Source of the DNA: a virus
Direction: 5' to 3' (one strand)
DNA: 46,768 bases
Virus record (IMG/VR): IMGVR_UViG_3300021364_000040
Location: 1-46,768 of that record
Shown here: positions 3,223 to 45,630 of the stretch, one piece after another
Layout of the letters: every line of letters starts with the position of its first letter
Numbering within the stretch: position 1 is the stretch's first letter
Position numbers and translations under genes: made by a program
The notes under the pieces: generated by a model
What the model was told of the DNA's origin: nothing
The model's database searches: none
Seen by the model: the letters and a program-made list of their open reading frames with translations, nothing else

Positions 3223-4013
3223 AGAAAACATTTCTTATCATAGGGATTTCTATAATCCCTATGTTTTCTTATGCAGACGATAATCACGTTCATGTAGAAC
3301 AAGTCAATGGTGGTGACAATGCAGATTTATCAATTGACCAAATAGGTTATAATAACCTTGCACGTTTTTCTTTTGACCACCAAAATAATACAATAGACCT
3401 TTTACAATCAGGAAACAATTTGTATATTGGTTGGACTGATACATGGGGTTCGGGTAAAAGTTGGGGTGGTGATTTAGACGGATATAATAATGAATTAGAA
3501 GTTAGACAAAAATGTTCTGTCACAAGTTGTAATGATAATGATTTTGGATTTCATATATGGGGTAATTACAACCAAGTTGTTTTTGGTCAAGGATATGAAA
3601 TCAACAACTCACTTACACCTACTTGGAGTTATGACGGAACGGAGCCTGGTGGAAACTATGTAAGATTAGATATTCATGGTGACTACAATGACTTTAAAGG
3701 AAGTCAGAAACAAGATTCAGATTCAATAAGTCATTCAATGACTTGGAACATTTATGGTGATTACAATGACGTATTTTCAAAACAATTGCAGAATGGTGAT
3801 AAGACACTTACTGGAACAATTAACAACGATTACAATGAAGTTAGTGTAATTCAGAAAAAGACTGGAGCTCACACTGCAACAATAACACTAGACGGAACAT
3901 ACGGAACAGATTTAACCTTAGTTCAAACAGGTGATACTGCACAATCATATACACTATCTCAAACATGTAATACAATAGGTGGTTGCACTTTAAACGTCAC
4001 TCAAGGTAATTAA
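3210..4013 (+). CDS. Second curlin-like secreted repeat protein
   Basis: A protein of 267 aa with a signal peptide (MDILKKTFLIIGISIIPMFSYA). Its repeats contain LSIDQIGYNN, IDLLQSGNN, GDLDGYNNELEVRQ, IWGNYNQVVFGQ, IHGDYNDFKGSQKQ, IYGDYNDVFSKQ, INNDYNEVSVIQK and TLVQTGDTAQSYTLSQ. The recurring x-G-x-Y-N-x-(V/F) plus Gln spacing, about 20-25 residues apart, is like curlin repeats, here with DYN in place of GNxA. It is a paralogue-like partner of the first curlin-like gene (compare IDQIGFGN with IDQIGYNN). This could parallel a CsgA/CsgB pair. Its last base is the first base of the cyclase start codon. Confidence 0.72.
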   Translation: MDILKKTFLIIGISIIPMFSYADDNHVHVEQVNGGDNADLSIDQIGYNNLARFSFDHQNNTIDLLQSGNNLYIGWTDTWGSGKSWGGDLDGYNNELEVRQKCSVTSCNDNDFGFHIWGNYNQVVFGQGYEINNSLTPTWSYDGTEPGGNYVRLDIHGDYNDFKGSQKQDSDSISHSMTWNIYGDYNDVFSKQLQNGDKTLTGTINNDYNEVSVIQKKTGAHTATITLDGTYGTDLTLVQTGDTAQSYTLSQTCNTIGGCTLNVTQGN

Positions 4014-5857
4014 TGTATTCGTGGAAAACAGTTGTAATAACCATAGGGTTATTATTCGGTCTTAAGATATGGAATCCCTATTTCATAGAAAATATATCAT
4101 GGTCTTATTTTGATTATCTACACCAATCTCAGGAAGTAGTTCAGGTAGACAATATTGTCTTAGTAGATATAGACGAATCTTCACTTGAAGTGTATGGTCA
4201 GTATCCTTGGCCAAGGTCTATTTACAGGGATTTAATGCTTGACACTTCATACACTAATACACATGTTTTCACTCAACTCTTTAAAGAACCTGATAGGTTT
4301 CAGGGTGATGAGGCATTTGCAGAAGGTTTAGTTAACCGATTATCGATTCTATCTTCTGCACCAACAATTCAAAAAGATACTGGTTCTGCACCTTTTGTAA
4401 GAACTAGTGTTTTCGGTGGAGGAAATATAGAAGACCATATATGGAGTTTTTCAGGAATTTCTTCACCTATTCCAATACTAGAACAAAATTCATATGGTTC
4501 AGGTGTGACAATTACCACACCACCTATTAGTGGAACTGCAAACTTTGACGGAACAGTTCGTTCTGCACCATTAATTGTTTCTGCAAATGGTGTAGTGTAT
4601 CCCTCAGTTGCACTAGAAGTTTTACGTGCAATGTATGACGAACCTAATTATCAGACTCGTGTGACACCCGAAGTTGGAATCGAATGGATTCGTATAGGTA
4701 GACAACCCCCAATCGAAACCACTCCAACTGCAGATATCCTTGTAGGATATTGGAATAATTTCGAAAGGGTGTCGGCAAAAGATTTACCAAATTCTAACCT
4801 AGAGAACAAGACTCTAATTTGGGGTCTGACGGCTGAAGGTCTGAATAATCCAGTTTCAACCCCAGTGGGTGTAAAGTATCCTCACGAAGTTCAAGCTTCA
4901 ATCCTCCACTCCGTCTCCACAGGAGTTCAAATACAACAATCCTACTATCTTGAATTCTTAGAAGTCGTTCTTCTATTGACAGTCCTTTTAGCAATATTGG
5001 TATCGGTCTACACACTTCCCACAATTTTTTCGGGGATAGTGAGTCTAGGTATCGTTGGATTTCAGGTGGGTTTGGGTTTCTATTTGTGGACTTCAAGTTT
5101 CGTTCTTTTCGATATCTTCTACTCATCGATGGCCTCCATAATAGTTTTTGGACATGCTTCCTTCAACAAATATTATAAAACCTATCAACTCAAAGAACAA
5201 ATTAAGAAGCAGTTTCAAAAGTATTTATCTCCCGACATGGTTGACCAACTTGCAAAAAACCCCGACTTATTAAAACTAGGTGGTGAAAGAAAAGAAATGA
5301 CATTCATGTTCATGGACATATGTGGATTCACACCCATAAGTGAACACTATAAAAACAATGACGACCCCGAAGGATTAGTTGAACTCATAAACAAGTTTCT
5401 TGACATGCAAACAAAGATAATCCTAAATAATAAAGGAACAATCGACAAATACATGGGCGACTGTATTATGAGTTTTTGGAATGCACCTTTGGATTGTCCA
5501 AATCATGCTGAACTAGCAGTTAAGTCTGCAATAGAAGTATTAGCTGCAACCAAGGAACTCAATGAAGAACTTAAACCCCTCAACCTACCTCCTATCAATG
5601 TTGGTATTGGTATCTCTACAGGTGAGTGCATCGTTGGAAACATGGGGTCAGAAGTTAGATTTGACTATTCCGTCATTGGAGACGCCGTCAACCTTGGGGC
5701 TAGACTCGAGGGACAAACTCGAAATTACGAAGGGGTGGACGTGTTGTTATCATCAGAAACATATCGACAGTGTCCAAATAGAACATTCTCAGAAGTTGAT
5801 AGAATCAAGGTTAAAGGAAAGTCAGAACAGGTCACTATTTACACTCCGATTAGTTGA
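4013..5857 (+). CDS. CHASE2-domain class III adenylate cyclase, membrane-bound
   Basis: A protein of 614 aa. It has an N-terminal membrane helix, then a periplasmic CHASE2-type sensor (about 25-300: VDNIVLVDIDESSLEVYGQYPWPRS is the family's opening), three close transmembrane helices (about 310-385), a short linker (YLSPDMVDQL) and a class III cyclase domain (about 415-610). Catalytic features are present: metal Asp435 (FMDICGFT) and Asp483 (KYMGD), Lys479 for adenine recognition, and Asn560 and Arg564 (VNLGARLE). The second base-specifying position, usually Asp or Thr, appears to be Ser553. The expected reaction is ATP to cAMP. It overlaps the second curlin-like gene by 1 nt, so it probably belongs to the curli-like operon. 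I know of no common precedent in T4-type phages. Confidence 0.92.
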   Translation: MYSWKTVVITIGLLFGLKIWNPYFIENISWSYFDYLHQSQEVVQVDNIVLVDIDESSLEVYGQYPWPRSIYRDLMLDTSYTNTHVFTQLFKEPDRFQGDEAFAEGLVNRLSILSSAPTIQKDTGSAPFVRTSVFGGGNIEDHIWSFSGISSPIPILEQNSYGSGVTITTPPISGTANFDGTVRSAPLIVSANGVVYPSVALEVLRAMYDEPNYQTRVTPEVGIEWIRIGRQPPIETTPTADILVGYWNNFERVSAKDLPNSNLENKTLIWGLTAEGLNNPVSTPVGVKYPHEVQASILHSVSTGVQIQQSYYLEFLEVVLLLTVLLAILVSVYTLPTIFSGIVSLGIVGFQVGLGFYLWTSSFVLFDIFYSSMASIIVFGHASFNKYYKTYQLKEQIKKQFQKYLSPDMVDQLAKNPDLLKLGGERKEMTFMFMDICGFTPISEHYKNNDDPEGLVELINKFLDMQTKIILNNKGTIDKYMGDCIMSFWNAPLDCPNHAELAVKSAIEVLAATKELNEELKPLNLPPINVGIGISTGECIVGNMGSEVRFDYSVIGDAVNLGARLEGQTRNYEGVDVLLSSETYRQCPNRTFSEVDRIKVKGKSEQVTIYTPIS

Positions 5858-6771: not shown

Positions 6772-6780
6772 AAAACCCCC

Positions 6781-6818
6781 TTTACGTATACACCCGTTAT
6801 ATAGTATAATGGGTGTAT
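6781..6818 (+). promoter_or_regulatory. Promoter with inverted repeat, upstream of peroxiredoxin gene
   Basis: TTTACG (6781-6786), 18 nt, then TATAAT (6805-6810). An 8-bp perfect inverted repeat, ATACACCC (6788-6795) and GGGTGTAT (6811-6818), brackets the -10 box. It could be an operator or a weak terminator for upstream reading. The leader is about 24 nt and carries an AAGGAG ribosome site. Confidence 0.65.
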
Positions 6819-6840
6819 CTTTATATAAAGGAGATTTATT

Positions 6841-9784: not shown

Positions 9785-10023
9785 TGAAAGATATGACAAA
9801 TGAAATTCTAAAAGGTGTTGTTGCTCATGCAGACGGACATATTGCAAAACACAAAGCAAACATTCTAGTTCAATGTAAAAATTCAGTAGGGGTTGCAGAA
9901 CATGGTGACCACATTGAGACAATCGAAAAAGAATTAGAACAGATTGCTCATTACGAAGATTTAAAAGACGTAGTAAATAAACATTTTTCAGAATATACAG
10001 ACAGAACCACATTGACAGAATAG
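9784..10023 (+). CDS. Conserved hypothetical helical protein (79 aa)
   Basis: A short helical protein (GVVAHADGHIAKHKANILVQCKNSVGVAEHGDHIETIEKELEQIAHYEDL) just before the polymerase gene. It is His- and Glu-rich and has no known catalytic motif. Similar small proteins sit upstream of gene 43 in marine T4-type phages, as far as I recall. The -35 box of the polymerase promoter lies within its last codons. Confidence 0.65.
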   Translation: MKDMTNEILKGVVAHADGHIAKHKANILVQCKNSVGVAEHGDHIETIEKELEQIAHYEDLKDVVNKHFSEYTDRTTLTE

Positions 10024-10041
10024 ACCCTATTGTAGTATAAT
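10012..10041 (+). promoter_or_regulatory. Strong sigma70-like promoter for DNA polymerase; leaderless
   Basis: Consensus TTGACA (10012-10017), 18 nt, consensus TATAAT (10036-10041). The polymerase ATG is at 10048, six bases after the -10 box, which is the predicted transcription start. No ribosome site precedes it, so the mRNA from this promoter should be leaderless. Confidence 0.85.
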
Positions 10042-10047
10042 AACTAC

Positions 10048-12564
10048 ATGGATTTCTATACAAATGTTTGTAGGACTAGGGACAAGATTCTAGTCAAAGG
10101 CTATAAGAACGGAAAACAACAAAAACTTTCTGTTGCATATAGACCCAATCACTATATCCCTTCTAAGAAAGGGGAAACACCATTCAAAAGTTTAGACGGA
10201 AGACCACTCGAAGCAGTGAATCTAAACTCTATGGGTGGTGCAAGAAAGTTCAGAGAGAGATACAGTGGTGTCGAAGGATTCGAAATCCATGGATACGACA
10301 GATATATCTATACCTACATTGCAGATAAATTTCAAGGTGATATCAAGTGGGACTTGAAACATATAAAGATTGCAACACTTGATATTGAGTGTGAGTGTGA
10401 AGACGGATTCCCCGAACCAATCTATGCAAATGAAAAGGTCAATGCAATTTCAATCAAACCTATTGGTGAAGATACACAAGTGTTTGGTATCGGCCCTTGG
10501 GAACACAATAGAACAGACGTAGTTTATCACAACTGCAAAAACGAATCACAACTCTTACTCAACTTTATAAAATACTGGAGAACAGAAAACTTTGATATCA
10601 TCACTGGTTGGAATGTAAACAGTTTCGATATTACATATCTTTGTAATCGTATTGATAGAATTCTTGGTGAGGGAGAACACAAAAAACTTTCACCATGGAA
10701 TCAATGTGACGTGAGAGAATTCCATTCGGGTTTTGGTCAGAAACAAATGATATTCAATTTATATGGTATCAATGTTCTTGACTATCTTGAACTGTATCGT
10801 AAACATACATTCGTTAATCAAGAATCCTACAAACTAGAAAACATTGCACAAGTAGAACTTGGTAAAGGTAAGATTGACTATTCAGAGTATGGTAATTTAC
10901 ATACACTATACAAACAGGATTATGCAAAGTTCTTAGAATATAATGTCAAAGACGTTGTCCTTGTTGAAGAACTAGAAGAGAAATTAGGATTGATTGAATT
11001 GACTTGTGCAATGTCATACAATGCAAAGTGTAATTACAATGACACTTTCGGAATGGTGAAATATTGGGAAACCATAATCTACAATCACCTCAAAGAACAA
11101 AACATTCAGACACCACCACAAAGACTGAAGAGTGGTAATGACAAGACACACCAAATCGTTGGTGCATATGTCAAAGACCCAATAGTCGGTGGACATGATT
11201 GGGTAGTGTCATTCGACTTGAACTCACTGTATCCACATATCATTATGCAATACAATATCTCACCCGAGAAAATGGTAAAAGGAAACAGACAAGATATCAA
11301 CGTAGAGAAAATGTTATCTAAACAAGCGGACTTATCTTATGTCTATCAATGTGGAAATACAGTCACACCAAATGGTGTAATGTATTCTAAAGATAAACAA
11401 GGATTTCTTCCCGAACTTATGGAACGACTCTATGACGAAAGAAAAGAGTGGAAGAAGAAAATGATTGGTTATCAGAAAGAACGAGAAGTCTGTAAAGAAC
11501 TAAAACGTAAGAGAGAACTTGATACACTTATTAAACGTGCATACAATAATCAACAGGTTCGTAAGATTGCACTTAACTCAGCATATGGAGCTCTTGCAAA
11601 TCAATACTTTGCATTCTTTTCTATCGACCTTGCAGAGTCAATCACAACCAGTGGTCAGTTAATTATCAAGTGGTCAGAGAAAACTATTAATGAATTCCTA
11701 AACAAAACACTTGAGACAGAGAACGAAGACTATGTGATTGCAATGGATACCGATTCTGTTTACATTACAATGGACAAACTAGTTAAGAAAGTTTTACCCG
11801 AAGAAACAGACAAGACCAAGATTGTAGATTTTCTAAACAAATCTGAAGGAATGATTGAACAGGTTCTTGCAAAAGGATTCAAAGAACTTGCAGAATACAC
11901 CAATGCATTCCAACAGAAAATGCAAATGGGGAGAGAGGTAATTGCAGACAGAGGTATTTGGACTGCAAAGAAAAGATACATTCTCAATGTTCATGACAAC
12001 GAAGGTGTAAGACTTGCAGAACCGAAACTTAAAATGATGGGTATCGAAACTGCAAAGTCTTCTACACCTCAATGGGTCAGAACAAAACTAACAGAAGCCT
12101 TAAAGGTGGTTATGAATGGAACTGAACAAGAATTGTGGGAGTTCGTAGAAACTGCAAGAAAAGAATTCAGAAACCTTCCACCCGAAGAGGTTGCATTTCC
12201 AAGAGGTGTAAAAAATCTTGCACAATACTCTTGTCCTACAAACATTTATTCTAAAGGAACACCAATTCATGTTCGAGGTTCTCTACTACACAACCATTTA
12301 TTGAAATCCAAGAACCTCGACATGAGATATGAAATGATTAAGAACTCAGATAAGATTCGTTTTTCATATCTCACAACACCAAACCCAATCAATGAGAATG
12401 TCATATCGTTTATTAGTTCACTTCCTAGGGAACTAGATTTACATAGATTCATTGATTATGATATGCAATTTGATAAAGCATTTACAGAACCATTAAAGAA
12501 TATCGTAAACTTAATTAACTGGAATGTAGAACCAGTTGCAAGTTTAGATTCGTTCTTTGGTTAG
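10048..12564 (+). CDS. 43: Family B DNA polymerase (gp43)
   Basis: A protein of 838 aa. The 3'-5' exonuclease domain carries Exo I (LDIECE, Asp112/Glu114), Exo II (NVNSFDITYL) and Exo III (YNVKDV). The polymerase domain carries motif A (DLNSLYPHII, SLYP 393-396), motif B (KIALNSAYGALANQ) and motif C (MDTDSVY, Asp567/Asp569). The C-terminal peptide (LDSFFG) resembles the clamp-binding tail of T4 gp43. It replicates the phage genome. It is slightly shorter than T4 gp43 (898 aa). The strong promoter at 10012 gives a leaderless transcript. Confidence 0.97.
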   Translation: MDFYTNVCRTRDKILVKGYKNGKQQKLSVAYRPNHYIPSKKGETPFKSLDGRPLEAVNLNSMGGARKFRERYSGVEGFEIHGYDRYIYTYIADKFQGDIKWDLKHIKIATLDIECECEDGFPEPIYANEKVNAISIKPIGEDTQVFGIGPWEHNRTDVVYHNCKNESQLLLNFIKYWRTENFDIITGWNVNSFDITYLCNRIDRILGEGEHKKLSPWNQCDVREFHSGFGQKQMIFNLYGINVLDYLELYRKHTFVNQESYKLENIAQVELGKGKIDYSEYGNLHTLYKQDYAKFLEYNVKDVVLVEELEEKLGLIELTCAMSYNAKCNYNDTFGMVKYWETIIYNHLKEQNIQTPPQRLKSGNDKTHQIVGAYVKDPIVGGHDWVVSFDLNSLYPHIIMQYNISPEKMVKGNRQDINVEKMLSKQADLSYVYQCGNTVTPNGVMYSKDKQGFLPELMERLYDERKEWKKKMIGYQKEREVCKELKRKRELDTLIKRAYNNQQVRKIALNSAYGALANQYFAFFSIDLAESITTSGQLIIKWSEKTINEFLNKTLETENEDYVIAMDTDSVYITMDKLVKKVLPEETDKTKIVDFLNKSEGMIEQVLAKGFKELAEYTNAFQQKMQMGREVIADRGIWTAKKRYILNVHDNEGVRLAEPKLKMMGIETAKSSTPQWVRTKLTEALKVVMNGTEQELWEFVETARKEFRNLPPEEVAFPRGVKNLAQYSCPTNIYSKGTPIHVRGSLLHNHLLKSKNLDMRYEMIKNSDKIRFSYLTTPNPINENVISFISSLPRELDLHRFIDYDMQFDKAFTEPLKNIVNLINWNVEPVASLDSFFG

Positions 12565-13326: not shown

Positions 13327-13383
13327 ATGATGCTCTATTGTTCAGAGTTCCCACAAAAATGTAGAACTAGAAGAGGGGACTAA
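13327..13383 (+). CDS. Possible 18-aa peptide gene
   Basis: ATGATG follows a good GGAGG ribosome site by 3 nt and opens an 18-codon frame (MMLYCSEFPQKCRTRRGD). Its stop codon lies inside the hairpin of the terminator at 13370-13400. Two cysteines and a basic end are the only features. It could be a leader peptide or chance. Confidence 0.3.
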   Translation: MMLYCSEFPQKCRTRRGD

Positions 13384-13400
13384 CTAGTCCCTTCTTTTTT
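13370..13400 (+). terminator. Intrinsic terminator before iscU
   Basis: GGGACT (13376-13381), loop AACT, AGTCCC (13386-13391), with partial extension by GAA/TTC, followed by six T (13395-13400). It ends the polymerase-to-lipoprotein transcription unit directly before the late promoter at 13403. Confidence 0.8.
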
Positions 13401-13402
13401 AT

Positions 13403-13410
13403 TATAAATA
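13403..13410 (+). promoter_or_regulatory. T4-type late promoter TATAAATA for iscU
   Basis: An exact TATAAATA, six bases before the iscU ATG at 13417. T4 late transcripts begin about six bases after this element, so the mRNA would start at or one base before the ATG (leaderless). There is no ribosome site. Confidence 0.7.
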
Positions 13411-13416
13411 AGAGTA

Positions 13417-13812
13417 ATGGCATATAGTAAACAAGTGATTGAGAGGTTCGAAGGTGTTTTAAATTCACCCGAACAATTCTCAGTTGGAAGATTTGACCCT
13501 AACGACCCGAATGTAGCAACAGGAATGACGGGTGCTCCCGCATGTGGTGACGTTATGAAACTCCAATTGAAACTAAATCCCGATACCAATGTTATAGAAG
13601 ACGTAAAGTTTAAAACATATGGTTGTGGAAGTGCAATCGCAAGTTCAACTATGTTCGTTGATATGTTAAAAGGTTTAACTATAGACGAAGCCAAGGAAAT
13701 TAAAGATAAGGATATTGCAGACGCATTAGAACTTCCACCTATAAAACTACACTGTTCAGTGTTAGCAGAAGATTCAATCAGACGTGCAATCCAAAACTGG
13801 GAAGAAAAATAA
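13417..13812 (+). CDS. iscU: IscU Fe-S cluster scaffold protein
   Basis: A protein of 131 aa that is IscU-like over its whole length. It has the three cluster ligands Cys43 (GAPACGDVMKLQL), Cys70 (YGCGSAIASS) and Cys113 (LHCSVLAED), with Asp45 and His112. The chaperone-recognition motif LPPIK (106-110) matches the LPPVK that HscA binds. It should hold nascent [2Fe-2S] clusters made by the host cysteine desulfurase and pass them on via HscA/HscB. No IscS, HscA or HscB genes are nearby, so it depends on the host machinery. It shares its last base with the next start codon. It has its own late promoter and no leader. Confidence 0.95.
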   Translation: MAYSKQVIERFEGVLNSPEQFSVGRFDPNDPNVATGMTGAPACGDVMKLQLKLNPDTNVIEDVKFKTYGCGSAIASSTMFVDMLKGLTIDEAKEIKDKDIADALELPPIKLHCSVLAEDSIRRAIQNWEEK

Positions 13813-38041: not shown

Positions 38042-38071
38042 TTGACAATGGGTGTCACTTTTTGGTATTAT
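38042..38071 (+). promoter_or_regulatory. Sigma70-like promoter in a small hairpin; leaderless
   Basis: TTGACA (38042-38047), 18 nt, TATTAT (38066-38071), with ATG at 38078, six bases later. TGACA (38043-38047) and TGTCA (38053-38057) form a 5-bp hairpin followed by CTTTTT, a weak terminator nested with the -35 box. Confidence 0.7.
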
Positions 38072-38077
38072 AACAGT

Positions 38078-38587
38078 ATGGAAATGAAAGAGAAAAACGT
38101 GAAAAGAATCTTCGTAGATATGGACGGAGTAGTTGCAGACTTCCTTGCTGGTTGTTCTGAAATGATGGGTAAACCATTGACCAGTGACGATGCTGGTCAC
38201 ACTGAGTATGACCTCAGAAAAGAAGAATTGACTAACAAGAGATTATTTGGAATGTTGCCTCCTATGGTTGATTATGCAGATTTGATTGGATATATCAAAC
38301 ACACTGGTCTTCCTTGGGAAATACTAACTGCAGCTGGAACAGTCAACAGAGAGTTGGTTGTTTATGACAAAAACAAGTGGGTTAGAAAGTATATTGACCC
38401 TACAGTTGTGGTCACTTGCACTTACAGTGGAAGTCAAAAGGGTGCATTTGCAAAAGAAGGATTTGTGTTGATTGACGATAGACCAAAGAACATTAAAGCG
38501 TGGGAAGACGCAGGTGGTATTGGTATTATCCACGAAAGTGCTGAAAAAACAATCAAGATTTTGAAAGAATTAAGAAACGGAGAATAA
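38078..38587 (+). CDS. HAD-family 5'(3')-nucleotidase-like phosphatase
   Basis: A protein of 169 aa. Motif I is FVDMDGVVADF (nucleophile Asp and general acid Asp), motif II is LTAAGT and motif IV is LIDDRPKN. The layout is close to 5'(3')-deoxyribonucleotidases. It may dephosphorylate nucleotides to balance pools. I chose ATG 38078, because an in-frame TTG at 38042 is the -35 box of the promoter itself. Confidence 0.82.
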   Translation: MEMKEKNVKRIFVDMDGVVADFLAGCSEMMGKPLTSDDAGHTEYDLRKEELTNKRLFGMLPPMVDYADLIGYIKHTGLPWEILTAAGTVNRELVVYDKNKWVRKYIDPTVVVTCTYSGSQKGAFAKEGFVLIDDRPKNIKAWEDAGGIGIIHESAEKTIKILKELRNGE

Positions 38588-38588
38588 T

Positions 38589-38975
38589 ATGGAATATGCT
38601 TATCAAATAACTACTCAGAATGTTGAGGAATATGGTGAAAACTTTTACAAGTATAAGGGTGGTTCCGTATACTATGTGAAGTTTGAGGTCACTCAAGAAA
38701 TCTTTGAGAAAGATGCATATGGTGAAGGAGTCCATGATTATTACAATTGTCCTTCATTAACTGAAGCTACTGCAACTGCATTAGTTATGCAACATGTCAA
38801 TAGGTGGAATGGACTCTATGGTTCATTTGACTATATCACTGGTTGTGAAACTATTCACCTTAGTGATATAGACGAAGACTCTACAGTTTACACTGTATCA
38901 GACTTGATTGCAGATATCGATAATTCAAGAGAAGCTCACTATGACAATAATGGTGAACTTGCAGTCACACCATAA
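38589..38975 (+). CDS. Hypothetical protein (128 aa)
   Basis: Tyr- and Asp-rich (YENFYKYKGGSVYYVKFEVTQEIFEKDAYGE, NRWNGLYGSFDYITGCETIHLSDIDEDSTVYTVSDLIADI). No motif or family is recognised. It shares one base with the following gene. Confidence 0.55.
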   Translation: MEYAYQITTQNVEEYGENFYKYKGGSVYYVKFEVTQEIFEKDAYGEGVHDYYNCPSLTEATATALVMQHVNRWNGLYGSFDYITGCETIHLSDIDEDSTVYTVSDLIADIDNSREAHYDNNGELAVTP

Positions 38976-39403
38976 TGGTAGACACCTACGAGATACAAAA
39001 CGTCTCATTTGGAGACTTGACCCAAGAAGCTATACATGATATCCTAAAAGACGGGAGACTTGCTTCACACTTCTTAGAACGTCAATTAGAGATATGGTAT
39101 CCACATTTAACTTTTGTGGACGGAAAAGGATATGACCATATTGACGAAGAAGGAAATCTATATGACCAAAAGTGTTTCACTAAAGGTGGACTTGCATTTG
39201 CACCTTCTAATATGATTGGTGGGAGTAGAAGTATCAATGAGGAAGTTGCAACAGAACACTGTAAAGACATAACCTATATTGCATGTGATATTATAGACTT
39301 CCCTACAGTTAGAGTAAAATTTGCAAAAGGTTCTGACCTTATGAAGGAATATAAGAACTTCAAAATACCAAAATCCCAAAGAGAGAATTTCTTCTCTAAA
39401 TAA
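38975..39403 (+). CDS. Hypothetical protein, possible PD-(D/E)xK nuclease fold (142 aa)
   Basis: It contains GYDHIDEEGNLYDQKCFTKGG, where Asp...D-x-K resembles the PD-(D/E)xK nuclease core, followed by NMIGGSRSI and YIACDIIDFPTVRVKFAKG. The pattern is suggestive only, since the D-Q-K replaces the more usual E-x-K. It has no partner methyltransferase nearby. Alternative: an unrelated alpha/beta protein. Confidence 0.5.
   Translation: MVDTYEIQNVSFGDLTQEAIHDILKDGRLASHFLERQLEIWYPHLTFVDGKGYDHIDEEGNLYDQKCFTKGGLAFAPSNMIGGSRSINEEVATEHCKDITYIACDIIDFPTVRVKFAKGSDLMKEYKNFKIPKSQRENFFSK
39396..39402 (+). promoter_or_regulatory. Possible late promoter core CTAAATA
   Basis: CTAAATA overlaps the Lys-stop end of the preceding gene, 18 nt before ATG 39421. 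A TATATA (39410-39415) lies five bases before the ATG and there is no ribosome site. Either could serve the next operon. Confidence 0.3.
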
Positions 39404-39420
39404 AACACCTATATATTATC

Positions 39421-39702
39421 ATGTTAAAGAAAATATGGAATTTTATCAAGGCTATCCCTTTTTACTCAGCAAAACTGGGTAAGTGGACTGTTGAAAAATT
39501 TAAACAATGGTTCACAACACGATATAAGGTCACTGTATCATTCAATTCAATATATGGAGATTCAGACGACAGAGTGTTTATTACAAGAAAAGTGTTAATT
39601 CAGAAAGAAAAGCACTTGAAATTTAGGGACGATGATGGTAAAATAATAGAATATAGAAGTTCGGGAGGACTGAACTATATAATCGAGGAGTATGACGGAT
39701 AA
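39421..39702 (+). CDS. Conserved phage protein (93 aa)
   Basis: A basic, aromatic N-terminus (KKIWNFIKAIPFYSAKLGKWTVEKFKQWFTTRYK) is followed by a beta-rich part (VSFNSIYGDSDDRVFITRKVL, EKHLKFRDDDGKIIEYRSSGGLNYIIEEYDG). I recall similar proteins as conserved in marine T4-type phages. The N-terminal amphipathic helix may bind membrane. It meets the spanin gene at one base. Confidence 0.65.
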   Translation: MLKKIWNFIKAIPFYSAKLGKWTVEKFKQWFTTRYKVTVSFNSIYGDSDDRVFITRKVLIQKEKHLKFRDDDGKIIEYRSSGGLNYIIEEYDG

Positions 39703-40085
39703 TGCAACAATTTTTTATAGCAATCATACTTGTTCTCGGACTTGCCTCTTGGTGGTTATATAACGAAAACCAAACACTCACTGCAAACAACTATAAATTA
39801 GAACTTGCAGTAGAGGAACAACAAAGAACCATGGAAGTCATGAAAGAACAATATGAAAGACAGGGTAAAGCCTTACAAAACATGAGTCGAAAAAATGCAG
39901 AGATAGAACAGGAAAAGGCTGAATATCTTGCAATCTTTAGTAGACATAATTTAGATTTACTTGCACTGAAAAAGCCAGGAATGATTGAACTCAGAATGAA
40001 TAATGCCTCAGAAGCAGTAATGGAGGGAATGGAAAATGACACAAAAGAACTTTTTAATCTTGACGTGCCTGACACTAGTGATTAG
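39702..40085 (+). CDS. Rz: i-spanin (Rz-like)
   Basis: A protein of 127 aa with an N-terminal signal anchor (FFIAIILVLGLASWWLY) and a periplasmic coiled coil (NYKLELAVEEQQRTMEVMKEQYERQGKAL onward). The next gene, overlapping it by 50 nt in another frame, is a lipoprotein. This overlapping pair is the classical two-component spanin layout that fuses inner and outer membranes at lysis. The sequence itself is not distinctive, so the call rests on architecture and context. Confidence 0.75.
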   Translation: MQQFFIAIILVLGLASWWLYNENQTLTANNYKLELAVEEQQRTMEVMKEQYERQGKALQNMSRKNAEIEQEKAEYLAIFSRHNLDLLALKKPGMIELRMNNASEAVMEGMENDTKELFNLDVPDTSD

Positions 40086-40578
40086 TGGTTGTTCTATATT
40101 AGGAACAAAGAAAGTAGAGGTTGTATCAAAACCTATTGAAATTGATATCATGCAACCAGCACTTCCTAGACCTTTAGAATTGACTGCACCTAAATGGTTT
40201 GTCGTATCTGAAGCAAAGATTGTTAATCCATGTAAAAAATCTATCTCATTCGAACCTAAAAGATATGATGAGAATGGTGTAGAAGAACTCAAACGACCAA
40301 AAGTATGTGAGTTAGATGAGAGGGAGAATCCCGACTGGCCAGAGGGATATACTTATTTTGACCAATTCTTAGACGAAATGAAACGAGTGAATAATGGTGA
40401 GATATTATTCGTTGCAACCACTATTGGTGACTACAAAGTCATGGCAGAGGATATGCAAGAACTCAAAAGATACATAAATCAACTTGGAGAAGTTGTAATA
40501 TATTATAGAAATGTGACCATGCCTAACGGAGATAAAGGAGTAGGTGTGGGTGTGAAAAAGAATGACAAAACCAATTAA
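40036..40578 (+). CDS. Rz1: o-spanin-like outer-membrane lipoprotein (Rz1-like)
   Basis: A protein of 180 aa with lipobox VISGC (Cys19) after a good signal. The mature N-terminus is Pro-rich (QPALPRPLELTAPKW), as in Rz1. It is longer than most Rz1 proteins, with a C-terminal extension (ATTIGDYKVMAEDMQELKRYINQLGEVVIYY) that resembles the Rz1-like family seen in T4-type marine phages. It begins inside the Rz-like gene. Confidence 0.75.
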   Translation: MTQKNFLILTCLTLVISGCSILGTKKVEVVSKPIEIDIMQPALPRPLELTAPKWFVVSEAKIVNPCKKSISFEPKRYDENGVEELKRPKVCELDERENPDWPEGYTYFDQFLDEMKRVNNGEILFVATTIGDYKVMAEDMQELKRYINQLGEVVIYYRNVTMPNGDKGVGVGVKKNDKTN

Positions 40579-41317
40579 CGAAACACCTTTTAGTCCTATG
40601 GTAGGAACTTCGGTTCCTATATTTCCTATTTCATTGTATAGGTCAACAATTAATTTAAATCATGACCTTATTGCACAAGCTTGTCGTGACATAGTTGAAC
40701 CTATTAAGAGACAGGACAATAATATAAAAACACAATACACAACTTATTTTTCTAAAGAAGCACAAGAATATACTGAACAAAGAGAATGGTTCAAGGACTT
40801 TTCTGATATAATCAAAGATTCATATGTAGATTGGTTATCTAATGAAATGAATATAGACTTCTCAGAACTTAGTAGACATGACATTCACTTCTTTGCATGG
40901 TTAAATGTTTACAATGCACCACACCAACATGATTCTCATAATCACCCCGATTCATTAATCAGTGGAACATATTATGTCAAAGTGGATAAGAAATCTACAC
41001 CCATAAAATTTTATAATCCTAATTCTGCTTCTGCATGTTTTCCTATGGGAAGAGACCAACAATATGATGGTCATGATAATATGAATGGTATGGTCATAAG
41101 TGGGTTCGGACACCACCAACATGAAGTGTTTGTTCACCCAGTTAAAGGTGAAGTGTTAATGTGGCCTTCATATCTACAACATATGGTTCCACAATATGAG
41201 GGTGAACAAGAAGAGGATTATGAGAGAATAACAATATCATTTAATCTATATCACAATAGAAAGCTTTCAAGTCATACAACAGGACGTAATTTAGATTATA
41301 AATTTTTGAGGAAATAA
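40562..41317 (+). CDS. 2OG-Fe(II) oxygenase-like protein (251 aa)
   Basis: It has HQHDSHNHPDSLISGTYYV (iron-ligand region with several His and Asp), IKFYNPNSA, a GEVLMWPSYLQHMVPQY segment (distal His) and RITISFNLYH (2OG-binding Arg). This resembles the phage family of putative 2OG-Fe(II) oxygenases. The substrate is unknown. It overlaps the o-spanin by 17 nt and forms an operon with two more oxygenase-like genes. Confidence 0.72.
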   Translation: MTKPINETPFSPMVGTSVPIFPISLYRSTINLNHDLIAQACRDIVEPIKRQDNNIKTQYTTYFSKEAQEYTEQREWFKDFSDIIKDSYVDWLSNEMNIDFSELSRHDIHFFAWLNVYNAPHQHDSHNHPDSLISGTYYVKVDKKSTPIKFYNPNSASACFPMGRDQQYDGHDNMNGMVISGFGHHQHEVFVHPVKGEVLMWPSYLQHMVPQYEGEQEEDYERITISFNLYHNRKLSSHTTGRNLDYKFLRK

Positions 41318-42012
41318 TGAGTAAAGTATTTGCATGGGATAACCTACTAAAACAATCAGATAATTGGGACATATCCTATGACGGATTTGCATTAACTATT
41401 GATAACTTTTATGAGAATCCCGAAGAGATATATGAATATCTTATGACTAAAGATTATCCATTGTGGAAATACTCAACAGAGAGAAATAGTAAAAATGGTA
41501 TTGAATACAATGATTGCAGAGTTGTAGATACAATAGGACACCCAACAAGATTATACTTTAATGACATAGATAGGATTATAAATCTTTGTAGAAAATATTG
41601 GTGGAAATTTAATTATGATTGGGCACAGGTATTCGAAGTAAATTGTTTTCAAACAATAGACCAATTTGACACTACACTGCAACACTACCCACATATAGAT
41701 TCTACATTTGAAACACCCGACCATTTATCTACACTCAATATGTTAGTTTATTTGGATAAAGAAGAGGACGGGGGAACTGCAGTCTATGAAGGAACATGGA
41801 TTACAAACAACGAACAGGAATCATTACTCTATCCAGTGGAAGAGGATTTCAAATTAGATAGAGTATTAGAACACAAATTCAATAGGTGTGTCATATTCCC
41901 AGGCAACCGATTGCATGGTGCATATATAAATGATTACAATAAATATAAAGACGATAAGTGGAGATTCACTCAAGTGACTTTCTTTCACCCACAACAAAAT
42001 GCCAGAACGTAA
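41317..42012 (+). CDS. 2OG-Fe(II) oxygenase-like protein (231 aa)
   Basis: It has YPHIDSTFETPDHLSTLNMLVYLD (H-x-D), GGTAVYEG, FNRCVIFPGNRLHGAYI (distal His) and RFTQVTFF (Arg). It resembles DUF6445-type oxygenases. It overlaps the previous gene by one base and the next by 14 nt. Substrate unknown. Confidence 0.68.
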   Translation: MSKVFAWDNLLKQSDNWDISYDGFALTIDNFYENPEEIYEYLMTKDYPLWKYSTERNSKNGIEYNDCRVVDTIGHPTRLYFNDIDRIINLCRKYWWKFNYDWAQVFEVNCFQTIDQFDTTLQHYPHIDSTFETPDHLSTLNMLVYLDKEEDGGTAVYEGTWITNNEQESLLYPVEEDFKLDRVLEHKFNRCVIFPGNRLHGAYINDYNKYKDDKWRFTQVTFFHPQQNART

Positions 42013-42700
42013 GAATCCAAATTACATAGTCAGTGATACTGAAGTTTATAATGACCCCTTAGACTCGGGAAGAATACAAGTTGTAAGACCAGTAGGATAT
42101 CAACAGAGAGAGGTTGCACCTCTAATCATGATATCAGACGAAGCATTACCCGAAATGGATTGTAATATCATATTGAATGAATATAGAAAACCTAAATTTA
42201 TAGAGGTTGATATAGACGAGAACAATTCAGTGATTCCAAAGAATAATCCCGAATTATTAGAAGGTGGTCAAGTTTGGAAATACAGGTCAGACAATGGTTT
42301 AGGTATTGCAGTCATTCCACAAGATACACAAGCCTTTAACACTATTATGGAAGTCATTGACCCATTCTTACCAAAGAATGAAGATTATACAGGTGTTAAC
42401 TATATGACCATACAGGAATATCCTCAAGACACATATTTTGCAACACATAAGGACGATTCAGACGGGAAAGATACAGGAACAGTCATATTCTTTTTGAATG
42501 AAGATTTCAAGGGTGGTAATTTATTAGTGAATGGTCATACTATAATGGGTAGGACTGGAACTATGGTTGCATTTAATAATAACACTAGAACATATCATAG
42601 TGTCGAACCAATATATGGTGGAACTAGATACACACTTTGTATTTGGTTTGGAATGTTCGAAACGGAGATTCAAGATGACGATGCACCCGAGCAAAGTTAA
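41999..42700 (+). CDS. 2OG-Fe(II) oxygenase, prolyl-4-hydroxylase type (233 aa)
   Basis: It has FATHKDDSDGKD (H-x-D), TVIFFLNEDFKGGNLLV, GTMVAFNNNTRTYHSVEPI (distal His) and GTRYTLCIWFG (Arg). This is a clear P4H-like double-stranded beta-helix. It hydroxylates an unknown protein or other substrate using 2-oxoglutarate and O2. It is the clearest of the group. Confidence 0.85.
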   Translation: MPERKNPNYIVSDTEVYNDPLDSGRIQVVRPVGYQQREVAPLIMISDEALPEMDCNIILNEYRKPKFIEVDIDENNSVIPKNNPELLEGGQVWKYRSDNGLGIAVIPQDTQAFNTIMEVIDPFLPKNEDYTGVNYMTIQEYPQDTYFATHKDDSDGKDTGTVIFFLNEDFKGGNLLVNGHTIMGRTGTMVAFNNNTRTYHSVEPIYGGTRYTLCIWFGMFETEIQDDDAPEQS

Positions 42701-42839
42701 GTGTTGGATTTGTAGAAAAGAACTACCTATTGAAGAAGTGAAATACCATACTGCAATCAACGAAGAAAGACCCGTAAAGGTTTTTTGTGGTGCTGAATGT
42801 AGTTTAAAATATTATGAGGAGAAAAACAATGCCAGTTAA
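42675..42839 (+). CDS. Small zinc-finger protein (54 aa)
   Basis: The start ATG 42675 has GGAG 7 nt upstream; an in-frame start at 42567 lies within the oxygenase gene. The protein has CWICRKELPIEEV, an internal His and VFCGAECSLKYYEE, giving two Cys pairs around a MYM/FYVE-like zinc finger. Role unknown. Confidence 0.65.
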   Translation: MTMHPSKVKCWICRKELPIEEVKYHTAINEERPVKVFCGAECSLKYYEEKNNAS

Positions 42840-43065
42840 ATTTGGTAAAACCAGTAAACAGGTCGATAGAAACACCAAAAAGGTGACTGTAGTCCACGAG
42901 TATATGAAGTGTAAATCAGTCCAAGAATTGATTGACGCATATAATAAACCAGTCATTCCTAAATTACGTCAAAAGGTCAAGAATGAAATTGTCCGTAGAA
43001 ATAAATTAGGAAAGACTAATGTGATATTTAAAAATGAGGAGAAAAGTAATGAGCTTTTGGGATAA
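42829..43065 (+). CDS. Conserved phage basic protein (78 aa)
   Basis: ATG 42829 follows GAGGAG. It is basic and helical: MPVKFGKTSKQVDRNTKKVTVVHEYMKCKSVQELIDAYNKPVIPKLRQKVKNEIVRRN. I recall related proteins in many T4-type marine phages without function. It overlaps the zinc-finger gene and the next small gene. Confidence 0.65.
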   Translation: MPVKFGKTSKQVDRNTKKVTVVHEYMKCKSVQELIDAYNKPVIPKLRQKVKNEIVRRNKLGKTNVIFKNEEKSNELLG

Positions 43066-43207
43066 ATTTACGACTTTCTTAGGTTTTGAATGGGTTCGTG
43101 CAAGAGACGAGAAAGGTCGTTTTGTTGCAGATGACAAATCAACACCTAATGTAGACGAGTCGAAAAAGAAAGTCTACAAATCACGTTCTAAGAAAACGAA
43201 GAAGTAA
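43049..43207 (+). CDS. Small basic protein (52 aa)
   Basis: ATG 43049 has GAGGAG 8 nt upstream. The sequence is SFWDKFTTFLGFEWVRARDEKGRFVADD followed by a Lys/Arg tail. It resembles small phage proteins next to this conserved basic gene. The stop precedes the porin ribosome site. Confidence 0.55.
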   Translation: MSFWDKFTTFLGFEWVRARDEKGRFVADDKSTPNVDESKKKVYKSRSKKTKK

Positions 43208-43220
43208 TAAGGAGTATATT

Positions 43221-43853
43221 ATGAAAAATGTGATTACATTAATGTTAGGCTTGTTCCTAACAACTTCTGCATATGCAGATATAACAGGAAATATTGGTTA
43301 TCAAAATGACTTTGTTTTCCGTGGTGTCAATCAGACACAAAGTGGTGGTTCATTATCTACACAAGTAGTGTTAGATTCTAATGGATTTTATGGTGGTGTA
43401 TCTGCTAGTCAAGTAGACTTCGGTGACGAGGTTGATTCTAACTGGAGAGGTATGCTGAATGGTGGATTTTCTTTTGCATTCAATCAGAATGTTGCAATCG
43501 ACCTAGGTGTTTTATCACACCATTTTGATAATGACGCATTCGAACAAATGGACGAGATATACGCAGGTGTATCAGTTGGTTCATTCAGTGGATATGTGTT
43601 TCAAAATATTGATAATAATGATAACTTTGCAGAATTGTGTTATGATTTCTATTTTGGAACTGGAACACTTCAACTAGTGTATGGTTATCATGACGAGACT
43701 GCAGATTACTTTCAAGTAAGAGGTAATAAAACATTCGGTGATTTTACCATATTCACCACAATAGGTTATGCAGACCAAGACTCAGTATTGGGTGACTTGG
43801 GTCAATCTGAACTATTTGAAAATATATCAGTAGGATTCAGATATAACTTTTAA
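43221..43853 (+). CDS. TorF-like outer-membrane porin
   Basis: A protein of 210 aa with a signal peptide (MKNVITLMLGLFLTTSAYA). The mature part is a beta-barrel: GNIGYQNDFVFRGVNQTQSGGSLSTQVVL, alternating strands, and a terminal aromatic (SVGFRYNF). It matches the TorF-type putative porin family. A phage-encoded outer-membrane protein is unusual. It may alter permeability or mask receptors against superinfection. It is preceded by AAGGAG and followed by the tRNA cluster. Confidence 0.85.
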   Translation: MKNVITLMLGLFLTTSAYADITGNIGYQNDFVFRGVNQTQSGGSLSTQVVLDSNGFYGGVSASQVDFGDEVDSNWRGMLNGGFSFAFNQNVAIDLGVLSHHFDNDAFEQMDEIYAGVSVGSFSGYVFQNIDNNDNFAELCYDFYFGTGTLQLVYGYHDETADYFQVRGNKTFGDFTIFTTIGYADQDSVLGDLGQSELFENISVGFRYNF

Positions 43854-43859
43854 CAAACT

Positions 43860-43935
43860 GGGGCTGTAGCTCAGTTTGGAGAGCACCTGCTTTGCAAGCA
43901 GGGGGTCGTGGGTTCGATTCCCTCCAGCTCCACCA
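43860..43935 (+). tRNA. tRNA-Ala (anticodon TGC)
   Basis: A 76-nt cloverleaf with acceptor GGGGCTG paired to CAGCTCC, the G3-U70 pair that is the classic alanine identity element, an anticodon loop TTTGCAA giving TGC, and encoded CCA (43933-43935). It reads GCA and related codons. Confidence 0.95.
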
Positions 43936-43941
43936 GTTTTC

Positions 43942-44031
43942 GGAGAGGTGGCAGAGCGGTTGAATGCACTGGTCTTGAAAACCAGCATACGTGAAAACGT
44001 ATCGAGGGTTCGAATCCCTCCCTCTCCGCCA
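43942..44031 (+). tRNA. tRNA-Ser (anticodon TGA)
   Basis: A 90-nt tRNA with a long variable arm (TACGTGAAAACGTA), acceptor GGAGAGG/CCTCTCC, discriminator G, encoded CCA, and an anticodon loop with TGA (reads TCA). It is six bases from the Ala tRNA. Confidence 0.95.
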
Positions 44032-44036
44032 GATAT

Positions 44037-44112
<76 letters not shown>

Positions 44113-44120
44113 TATTATAG

Positions 44121-44150
44121 AAAAGAGGGTTGACAATGACCCTCTTTTTT
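44121..44150 (+). terminator. Terminator after tRNAs, nested with a promoter
   Basis: AAAAGAGGGT (44121-44130), loop TGACAATG, ACCCTCTTTT (44139-44148), with a T-run. The stem is 10 bp including the A-T base. The -35 box of the next promoter (44130-44135) lies in its loop side. Confidence 0.85.
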
Positions 44151-44159
44151 TATTATAAT
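44130..44159 (+). promoter_or_regulatory. Sigma70-like promoter within terminator; leaderless
   Basis: TTGACA (44130-44135), 18 nt, TATAAT (44154-44159), with ATG 44166 six bases later. There is no ribosome site. Confidence 0.8.
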
Positions 44160-44165
44160 AAGAGT

Positions 44166-44624
44166 ATGGAAAAACAATTAACAATAATCTTTGACGTTGA
44201 CGGAACTATTGCAGACGTTGAACATAGAAGACACCTTGTAAATGGTGATAAAGGGTTTAAACCCGATTGGAATGCATTCAGACAAGCTACTGCAGACGAT
44301 ACTCCAGTAGAACATGTTTGTGACATTGCAAAAAGATTCATTGCAAAAGGTGACAATGTTGCGTTCTTTAGTGCAAGAAACGAATCAGAAAGAGAAATTA
44401 CAGAACAACAAATCAACGAGTGGATTGGTGAAGGTCATAAAGGATTATTCCTTAGACCTAATGGTGACTATAGACCTGATGAAGAGTTTAAGAGTGACCT
44501 TGCAGACCAATTCGAAGAATTAGGTGGTAAAATCGACCTTGTATTTGACGACAGAAACAAAGTTGTTGATATGTGGAGAAAGAGAGGAACCACTTGTGTT
44601 CAAGTTGCAGAAGGAGATTTCTAA
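44166..44624 (+). CDS. HAD-family phosphatase / polynucleotide 5'-kinase-like 3' domain
   Basis: A protein of 152 aa starting at ATG 44166 (an upstream in-frame TTG is the -35 box). Motif I is FDVDGTIADVEHRRHL, motif II is FFSARNESEREITEQQI and motif IV is LVFDDRNKVVDMWR. The DVDGT(I/L)A...HR arrangement resembles the phosphatase domain of T4 polynucleotide kinase, but the kinase domain is absent. It may remove 3' phosphates from nucleic acids or act on nucleotides. The start is shared with a leaderless promoter. Confidence 0.78.
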   Translation: MEKQLTIIFDVDGTIADVEHRRHLVNGDKGFKPDWNAFRQATADDTPVEHVCDIAKRFIAKGDNVAFFSARNESEREITEQQINEWIGEGHKGLFLRPNGDYRPDEEFKSDLADQFEELGGKIDLVFDDRNKVVDMWRKRGTTCVQVAEGDF

Positions 44625-44776
44625 TGGGTGAATACTTTGATATACTAGATTCTATTCGTGATACTGGTCAAATAAACATGTTCGAGGCACCTAGAGTGTT
44701 GAGAGAAATGTTTGACCTAGACAAACAAGAATCATTCAAAATAGTTGAAGAGTGGATGAAATCCAAGTCTGAATAA
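44624..44776 (+). CDS. Small helical protein (50 aa)
   Basis: ATG 44624 overlaps the previous stop by one base (TAATG). The sequence YFDILDSIRDTGQINMFEAPRVLREMFDLDKQESFKIVEEWMKS is helical; related short proteins occur in T4-type marine phages as far as I recall. No function is known. Confidence 0.6.
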   Translation: MGEYFDILDSIRDTGQINMFEAPRVLREMFDLDKQESFKIVEEWMKSKSE

Positions 44777-44789
44777 ACATTCCAATTGT

Positions 44790-44797
44790 TATAAATA
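44790..44797 (+). promoter_or_regulatory. Late promoter TATAAATA with 5' hairpin leader
   Basis: An exact TATAAATA. The predicted start is about 44803, where GTGTCA (44803-44808), loop CATAAT, TGACAC (44815-44820) forms a 5'-terminal hairpin. A leader of about 100 nt runs to ATG 44906 and contains AGGAG. Confidence 0.7.
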
Positions 44798-44905
44798 CTA
44801 TTGTGTCACATAATTGACACATAACTGAAACATTTAAGACACAAGAGTAAGTAGAGAAATCGAAGTCCAGCTGTCGGATAGTTTCAAACATAACAGGAGA
44901 TAGAT

Positions 44906-45184
44906 ATGCTTAAATATGCATTAGTGTCTGCCTTGTTTTTAGTCGGATTTGCACAGGCAGACCAACACATAGAGAAATCCGATGTGAACAAAGTATATGT
45001 GATGAAAGACAATTCACTTATCTTTGAACTCAAAGACGAATCATATTACAAAGGTGATATCATAACACCCGATTGTCTACGAGGTAAAATATACTTCCAA
45101 GAAGAAATTCATAATACTTTCAGAATAGAAAACACTTCAGGCTTTAAAACTTGTAGGTTCTCACAACTAGAGAGGATTGCATAA
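44906..45184 (+). CDS. Small secreted protein (92 aa)
   Basis: A signal peptide (MLKYALVSALFLVGFAQA) is followed by a mature beta-rich protein (VNKVYVMKDNSLIFELKDESYYKGD, TPDCLRGKIYFQEE, FKTCRFSQLERIA) with two Cys that could form a disulfide. No family is recognised. It is under a late promoter with a long leader. Its stop overlaps the next small ORF. Confidence 0.65.
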   Translation: MLKYALVSALFLVGFAQADQHIEKSDVNKVYVMKDNSLIFELKDESYYKGDIITPDCLRGKIYFQEEIHNTFRIENTSGFKTCRFSQLERIA

Positions 45185-45249
45185 TGAAATACTTGCACAA
45201 AATAATGAAAGCAGGTAGACTGCAAAACGTTTGGAGATTATTTACTTAA
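45184..45249 (+). CDS. Possible 21-aa peptide gene
   Basis: ATG overlaps the preceding stop (TAATG). It encodes MKYLHKIMKAGRLQNVWRLFT, a short basic amphipathic peptide. It is coupled to the secreted protein gene. It may be real or chance. Confidence 0.35.
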   Translation: MKYLHKIMKAGRLQNVWRLFT

Positions 45250-45255
45250 AATCAC

Positions 45256-45285
45256 TTGACAGAACCCATATAGCTGTAGTATTAT
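45256..45285 (+). promoter_or_regulatory. Sigma70-like promoter inside inverted repeat; leaderless
   Basis: TTGACA (45256-45261), 18 nt, TATTAT (45280-45285), ATG 45292 six bases later. The -10 box lies inside the loop of a perfect 10-bp inverted repeat (see the terminator at 45263). Confidence 0.75.
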
Positions 45286-45302
45286 AGTTATATGGGTTTT
45301 TT
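45263..45302 (+). terminator. Terminator-like hairpin spanning a promoter and start codon
   Basis: AACCCATATA (45263-45272) and TATATGGGTT (45289-45298) are perfect 10-bp arms with a 16-nt loop, followed by T-rich DNA (45297-45302). Incoming transcripts would fold it, but the transcript that starts at 45292 carries only the right arm. Confidence 0.65.
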
Positions 45303-45630
45303 AAATCTTAGTTCTAGTATTCGTTATAGTCCACACGGAAAAAAACGTAAGACGAATGCATTTAACAGACCAAAAAAATCCACTAAATATAAACAACTGA
45401 TTGCAGAACAACAACGTATATACGACAGAGTTCTAAAAGAGGTTGAGGATACGATTCCAAGTTGGGTAGGGACACATACAGGTGATATCACACCACGTAA
45501 AGAACCTATGCAATATACAGGGGAACGTAAATTATTAGGAATCGCAACCATGCACAAATCGAATATGGTTCCTATCTTCGAAGAGGATAAAGAACACGCA
45601 ATCGATATTGCAAGAATGCGAAGAAGTTGA
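45292..45630 (+). CDS. Conserved phage basic protein (112 aa)
   Basis: It begins with a basic stretch (RYSPHGKKRKTNAFNRPKKSTKYKQL) and ends with RKLLGIATMHKSNMVPIFEEDKEHA, a phrase conserved in phage hypotheticals in my memory. Start ATG 45292 has no ribosome site and sits at the predicted start of the promoter at 45256. Confidence 0.65.
   Translation: MGFLNLSSSIRYSPHGKKRKTNAFNRPKKSTKYKQLIAEQQRIYDRVLKEVEDTIPSWVGTHTGDITPRKEPMQYTGERKLLGIATMHKSNMVPIFEEDKEHAIDIARMRRS

What the first reader, a model, noticed from the sequence alone, without database searches (positions are those of the whole stretch)
38042..45302. Promoters nested inside terminators
At 44121-44159 the -35 box lies in the loop of a 10-bp terminator. 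At 45263-45302 a perfect 10-bp inverted repeat spans the -10 box and start codon and is followed by T-rich DNA. At 38042-38062 a smaller 5-bp version with CTTTTT overlaps the -35. Upstream transcripts would stop while a new leaderless transcript begins, so the unit works as a punctuation and restart element.
Basis: partly seen in the sequence, partly recalled or inferred. Interest (0 to 1): 0.6.

Follow-up and report, generated by a model that had tools for sequence, protein, structure and literature searches.

The report
Terminators fused with leaderless phage promoters
In an uncultured marine T4-like phage and its relatives, a short DNA element seems to end one transcript and start the next on the same 40 bases, because the promoter's -35 box lies inside the terminator hairpin and the hairpin's T-run doubles as the promoter's spacer.

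Summary
All three elements exist as described. The window is a 46.8-kb fragment of an uncultured marine T4-like (Kyanoviridae-like) phage. At 44121-44168 a 9-bp stem has TTGACA at its loop and a T7 tract; TATAAT follows 18 nt after TTGACA and ATG 6 nt later. At 45256-45302 a stem of at least 10 bp encloses the -10 box, with the start codon in its 3' arm and T6 behind. At 38042-38080 the version is weak (5 bp, -2.9 kcal/mol). Shuffled windows give 0.005 such leaderless promoters (observed 4) and none with stem plus T-run (observed 2).

The architecture recurs in relatives before different genes, with different but complementary arm sequences. Swapping arms between promoters destroys pairing (z about 7). 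Strong stems occur in 13 of 64 T-tract promoters and 0 of 36 without a tract.

The best reading is a compact leaderless sigma70-type promoter, made bifunctional (terminator plus promoter) in some lineages. Termination, start sites and 'restart' by the same polymerase are untested. I found no published description.

The parts
43860..44112 (+). tRNA-Ala, tRNA-Ser, tRNA-Thr array that the 44121 unit would terminate
   Evidence: ARAGORN; Rfam
44121..44151 (+). Terminator hairpin plus T7: arms 44121-44129 and 44140-44148, T-run 44145-44151
44130..44159 (+). sigma70-type promoter: TTGACA 44130-44135 at the hairpin loop, 18-nt spacer, TATAAT 44154-44159
   Evidence: 12/12 consensus match
44166..44624 (+). 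Leaderless ORF, 152 aa, PNKP-type HAD 3'-phosphatase; ATG 6 nt after the -10 box
45256..45285 (+). Promoter TTGACA 45256-45261, 18-nt spacer, TATTAT 45280-45285
45262..45302 (+). Hairpin enclosing the -10 box (perfect arms 45263-45272 and 45289-45298) followed by T6 45297-45302
   Evidence: unit identical in L527 although the upstream gene differs
45292..45630 (+). Leaderless ORF, 112 aa, phrog_27048, function unknown; its ATG lies in the 3' arm
38042..38071 (+). Promoter TTGACA/TATTAT with weak hairpin TGACA 38043-38047 / TGTCA 38053-38057 and T5 38059-38063
38078..38587 (+). Leaderless ORF, 169 aa, 5'(3')-deoxyribonucleotidase-like
10012..10050 (+). Related leaderless promoter of DNA polymerase (TTGACAGAATAG..TGTAGTATAATAACTACATG); no T-tract, small dyad round the -10 box

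Best explanation
These are leaderless sigma70-type (host RNA polymerase) promoters of an uncultured marine T4-like phage group. Shown by sequence: TTGACA, often followed by RTG; exactly 18 nt to the -10 box; a T-tract just upstream of the -10 box; and ATG 6 nt after it, at the expected +1. In some members, including 44121 here, flanks of the -35 box and the first half of the spacer are complementary, so RNA made from upstream folds into a hairpin that abuts the T-tract: an intrinsic terminator sharing its bases with the promoter. Inferred mechanism: RNA polymerase arriving from upstream (at 44121 from a tRNA array) stops in the T-tract, about 15-20 bp before the new start; this ends the upstream transcript and limits occlusion of the promoter, and a new transcript without the hairpin starts at the ATG. 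The 45256 element is a second form in which the hairpin encloses the -10 box and start codon. Whether the terminated polymerase itself restarts there is speculation.
For: Elements confirmed and beyond chance. In 10 related contigs the pattern TTGACA-N18-TANNNT-N6-ATG occurs 32 times against 0 for the reversed control. T-tract in 22 of 32 nonredundant clade promoters chosen without regard to it, A5 in none. Hairpins with different but complementary arms before PNKP, peptidase-like, nucleotidyltransferase-like and other genes. Arm-swap test: T-tract units 9.62 against 7.72 +- 0.26, z 7.3; no-tract units z about 1; strong stems 13/64 against 0/36, Fisher p 0.0035. Near-perfect pairing occurs only in the registers with an 8-10 nt loop: 14 units against about 3 expected. 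In T-tract units the upstream gene more often stops before the -35 box (37/52 against 30/65, p 0.008). Post-termination polymerase can diffuse on DNA and reinitiate at nearby promoters in E. coli (PMC6978380).
Against: Most T-tract promoters have weak or no hairpin, so the tract must have another role or be a relic. Relatives at the NT5C locus carry an A-tract instead, which hints at a DNA-level promoter role of the tract. L012 and L047 keep the hairpin without the T-run. L409 has an equally strong hairpin over the start of the 45292 homologue without a T-run behind it, and five other homologues have none. Many upstream stop codons lie within 12 nt of the -35 box, where ribosomes are reported to repress a terminator (PMC4824070). 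No transcript data exist.
Confidence: 0.62

Rival explanations
1. The T-tract is purely a promoter feature (an A/T-tract in the spacer at about -20 to -15 that helps host sigma70 polymerase), and the hairpins are by-products or too weak to matter.
For: T-tract without hairpin is the commoner state; A-tract replaces it in some relatives; A or T makes up 89-96% at spacer positions 12-14 in the tract-agnostic set.
Against: Pairing is enriched only in T-tract units and abuts the tract; different arms covary; the 44121 hairpin is as strong as stand-alone terminators in the same genomes.
Confidence: 0.22
2. The inverted repeats are DNA operators: a phage or host repressor binds a dyad over the -35 or -10 box.
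For: Dyads cover the -35 box (44121) or -10 box (45256, polB); two variants keep the dyad without T-run.
Against: Arm sequences differ completely between relatives, unlike one operator; strong dyads occur only next to T-tracts (13/64 against 0/36).
Confidence: 0.1
3. For 45256 only: the hairpin hides the start codon in read-through RNA, so the gene is translated only from its own leaderless transcript.
For: ATG lies in the 3' arm; L409 has a different, equally strong hairpin at the same place without a T-run.
Against: Five other homologues lack it; the window unit also has T6.
Confidence: 0.2

Closest known systems
Intrinsic (Rho-independent) terminator of host RNA polymerase
   Same: Stem followed directly by T5-T7, behind genes or tRNAs; typical energies at 44121 and 45256
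   Different: The -35 box (44121) or -10 box (45256) of the next gene's promoter lies within the hairpin
sigma70-type early promoter of T4-like phages
   Same: TTGACA/TATAAT-like hexamers
   Different: Fixed 18-nt spacer with T-tract; ATG at expected +1; in some members embedded in a terminator. Not found in HTVC008M, Melnitz or three other T4-like phage records plus one single-cell virus record
Recycling termination and reinitiation by E. coli RNA polymerase (PMC6978380, PMC11347151)
   Same: Terminator close to a promoter so that post-termination polymerase can restart
   Different: There the two sites are separate; here they share bases. Restart is not shown here
E. coli frd terminator / ampC region (from memory)
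   Same: Signals of neighbouring transcription units overlap
   Different: As I recall it, there the frd terminator acts as attenuator of ampC and lies downstream of its promoter

Membership tests
Intrinsic terminator | Stable stem-loop | tested here: met
   44121: -12 to -16 kcal/mol; 45256: -21 to -22; not met at 38042 (-2.9)
Intrinsic terminator | T-run directly after the stem on the same strand | tested here: met
   T7, T6, T5
Intrinsic terminator | Base pairing kept while sequence changes in relatives | tested here: met
   Arm-swap test z 7.3 over the family; held by about a fifth of T-tract members
Intrinsic terminator | RNA 3' ends in the T-run | not testable with these tools
   Needs Term-seq or in vitro transcription
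sigma70-type promoter | -35 and -10 hexamers 16-18 nt apart | tested here: met
   12/12 at 44130, 11/12 at 38042 and 45256, all with an 18-nt spacer
sigma70-type promoter | Transcription start 6-8 nt after the -10 box | not testable with these tools
   Needs 5'-end mapping
Leaderless gene | Start codon at the expected +1, without Shine-Dalgarno leader | tested here: met
   ATG exactly 6 nt after the -10 box in all three units; 24 of 36 clade promoters chosen without regard to ATG, 20 of them opening a long ORF
T4 late promoter | TATAAATA | tested here: not met
   None of the three; four + strand copies elsewhere in the window
N4-type hairpin promoter | Conserved hairpin sequence recognised by a virion RNA polymerase | tested here: not met
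   Arms vary freely while the -35/-10 hexamers are kept
Transcription attenuator | Hairpin inside the leader made from the same promoter | tested here: not met
   At 44121 and 38042 the hairpin lies wholly upstream of the expected +1

The most novel reading that the evidence does not exclude
A dedicated terminate-and-restart element: host RNA polymerase that stops in the T-tract stays on the DNA, slides about 15-20 bp and restarts as a leaderless transcript at the overlapping promoter, so that downstream expression is coupled to upstream flow without a continuous RNA.
Probability: 0.15. Interest if true: 0.75.

Novelty: new variant of a known kind. Interest (0 to 1): 0.5.

Why it matters
If confirmed, a terminator and a promoter can occupy the same 40 bp, often with the upstream stop codon and downstream start codon packed against them. 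That would be a striking case of genome compaction, a natural substrate for testing whether polymerase recycles from terminator to promoter, a compact bifunctional part, and a warning that tools which call promoters and terminators separately can miss such units.

Tried and rejected
Chance: rejected by shuffles and arm swaps. 'All terminators in these phages are fused': rejected, stand-alone terminators occur in the window, G001-G004, HTVC008M and Melnitz. Presence in known relatives: none in HTVC008M, Melnitz, Sf-CH5, C48C1 or S-SM2, nor in the single-cell virus record AG-345-O18. Bacterial genomes: 43 T-tract matches in 257 Gb, mostly without strong hairpins. Rfam gave only tRNAs. One alignment attempt was useless.

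Full report
What the window is. The window is a whole IMG/VR record of 46,768 bases: a marine T4-like phage fragment with 36% GC and nearly all genes on the + strand, encoding family-B DNA polymerase, UvsX-like recombinase, DnaB-like helicase and ribonucleotide reductase. For one gene the nearest isolates are Pelagibacter phage HTVC008M and the Methylophilales phages Melnitz, at 42-53% protein identity.

Observation check. All three elements are present at the stated places. Dinucleotide shuffles give 0.005 such leaderless promoters per window (observed 4) and no case with a stem of at least 7 bp followed by T5 (observed 2). Strength differs: about -12 to -16 kcal/mol at 44121, -21 to -22 at 45256, and only -2.9 for the short stem at 38042.

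Relatives. A search for the PNKP-like protein behind the 44121 unit brought 80 loci from IMG/VR. Their upstream regions show the same plan with other letters: TAGGGG-TTGACAATGA-CCCCTA-TTTTTT (L008), CTAGCTG-TTGACAGTGA-CAGCTAG-TTTTT (L010). Elsewhere: TGGGGGG-TTGACAATG-CCCCCCA (L254), GTAGGCC-TTGACAATG-GGCCTAC (L253), GATAAGC-TTGACAAT-GCTTATC (L316), all before a T-run. Downstream genes differ: PNKP-like phosphatase, a peptidase-like 784-aa protein (L230, L253) and a nucleotidyltransferase-like protein (L285); some units precede very short ORFs. In ten related large contigs the skeleton TTGACA-N18-TANNNT-N6-ATG occurs 32 times and its reversed control never; it is absent from five T4-like phage genomes and a single-cell virus record.

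Is the hairpin real? I swapped the 3' arms among nonredundant promoters, which keeps the shared motif and composition but breaks true pairs. In T-tract promoters of the RTR type the real stem score is 9.62 against 7.72 with sd 0.26 (z 7.3); in promoters without a tract it is not different (z about 1). Strong stems occur in 13 of 64 against 0 of 36 (Fisher p 0.0035). Near-perfect pairing appears only in the registers that leave an 8-10 nt loop round TTGACA (2, 3 and 9 units against about 0.5, 0.7 and 1.7 expected). This is the signature of an intrinsic terminator, not of a sequence-specific operator.

What is older: tract or hairpin? Probably the tract. In clade promoters picked without regard to it, a T-run of 4 or more is present in 22 of 32 and an A5 run in none. 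At the PNKP locus, 33 of the listed distinct upstreams have a T-run, but only 6 have a hairpin of -7 kcal/mol or stronger. Some NT5C-locus relatives carry an A-tract instead; those loci came partly from the A-tract control scan, so their frequency is biased. I therefore describe a family of leaderless promoters with an A/T-tract, usually T, next to the -10 box, of which a minority have become terminators as well.

The 45256 unit. It belongs with the DNA-polymerase promoter (TTGACAGAA...TGTAGTATWAT) rather than the RTG family. In L527, a 7.1-kb contig 92-97% identical over the aligned parts, the unit is kept letter for letter although the gene before it is different. Among more distant homologues of the 45292 gene, L409 (64% protein identity) has a different 9-bp perfect repeat at the same place (-21.7 kcal/mol, z -6.4) but no T-run; five others have no strong hairpin.

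Setting. In T-tract promoters the upstream gene usually ends just before the -35 box, or its TGA stop is the TGA inside TTGACA; it ends before the box in 37 of 52 against 30 of 65 for promoters without tract (p 0.008). At 44121 the upstream unit is a tRNA array, so no ribosome would interfere. Where coding sequence ends close by, ribosomes may weaken the terminator, as measured for tR2 in E. coli (PMC4824070).

Mechanism. Shown: sequence anatomy, excess over chance, covariation in a subset, association of hairpin with T-tract. Inferred: termination in the T-run, initiation at the ATG, reduced promoter occlusion. Speculative: direct restart by the terminated polymerase, which is known in E. coli at separated sites (PMC6978380; PMC11347151).

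Limits. No transcript data; hosts unknown; most sets were fetched by patterns that require ATG at +6 (the set was not, and still gives 24 of 36). ATG at +1 also occurs where the long gene starts 20-65 nt further on, so not every ATG is a proven leaderless start. Nonredundant sets were made by simple distance, not by a tree, so relatedness may inflate z scores somewhat. The literature search covers only the open library.

Noticed in passing
window 13366-13419: Strong stand-alone terminator (GAAGAGGGGACTAACTAGTCCCTTC + T-run) followed directly by the T4-type late promoter TATAAATA (13403) and, 6 nt on, ATG 13417: terminator and late promoter abut here too.
   Followed up: partly
window 6776-6840: Another promoter-like site (TTTACG-N18-TATAAT) with the -10 box in the loop of ATACACCC/GGGTGTAT, then a Shine-Dalgarno-led gene.
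   Followed up: partly
window 10012-10050: DNA polymerase promoter TTGACAGAATAG..TGTAGTATAATAACTACATG with a small dyad over the -10 box, largely kept in several relatives; possibly an operator.
   Followed up: partly
L330, L329, L354, L378, L387 upstream of NT5C-like genes: A-tract in place of the T-tract in otherwise the same promoter; in L354 and L378 the upstream gene's stop lies inside the spacer.
   Followed up: partly
L399 (G001), NT5C-like gene: Long inverted repeat TTTTGGGTA..TACCCAAAA encloses the -35 box, with no T-run.
   Followed up: no
L527 (JAAXIF010000078.1): 7.1-kb contig 92-97% identical to the window's 38231-45317 sits in a Sphingobacteriales MAG: mis-binned phage or a host clue; about 465 bp extra between the first two tRNAs.
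   Followed up: partly
L526 (Clostridia MAG): A similar unit in a bacterial contig: hairpin round TTGACA, T-run, TATAAT, ATG.
   Followed up: no
window 4013-5857: CHASE2 plus adenylate/guanylate cyclase protein in a phage; cyclase genes are annotated in HTVC008M and Melnitz as well.
   Followed up: no
L254, L139, L199, L216, L315: ATG at +1 is kept (often ATGATGA) although it opens only 8-14 codons; it may be an initially transcribed sequence rather than a gene start.
   Followed up: partly
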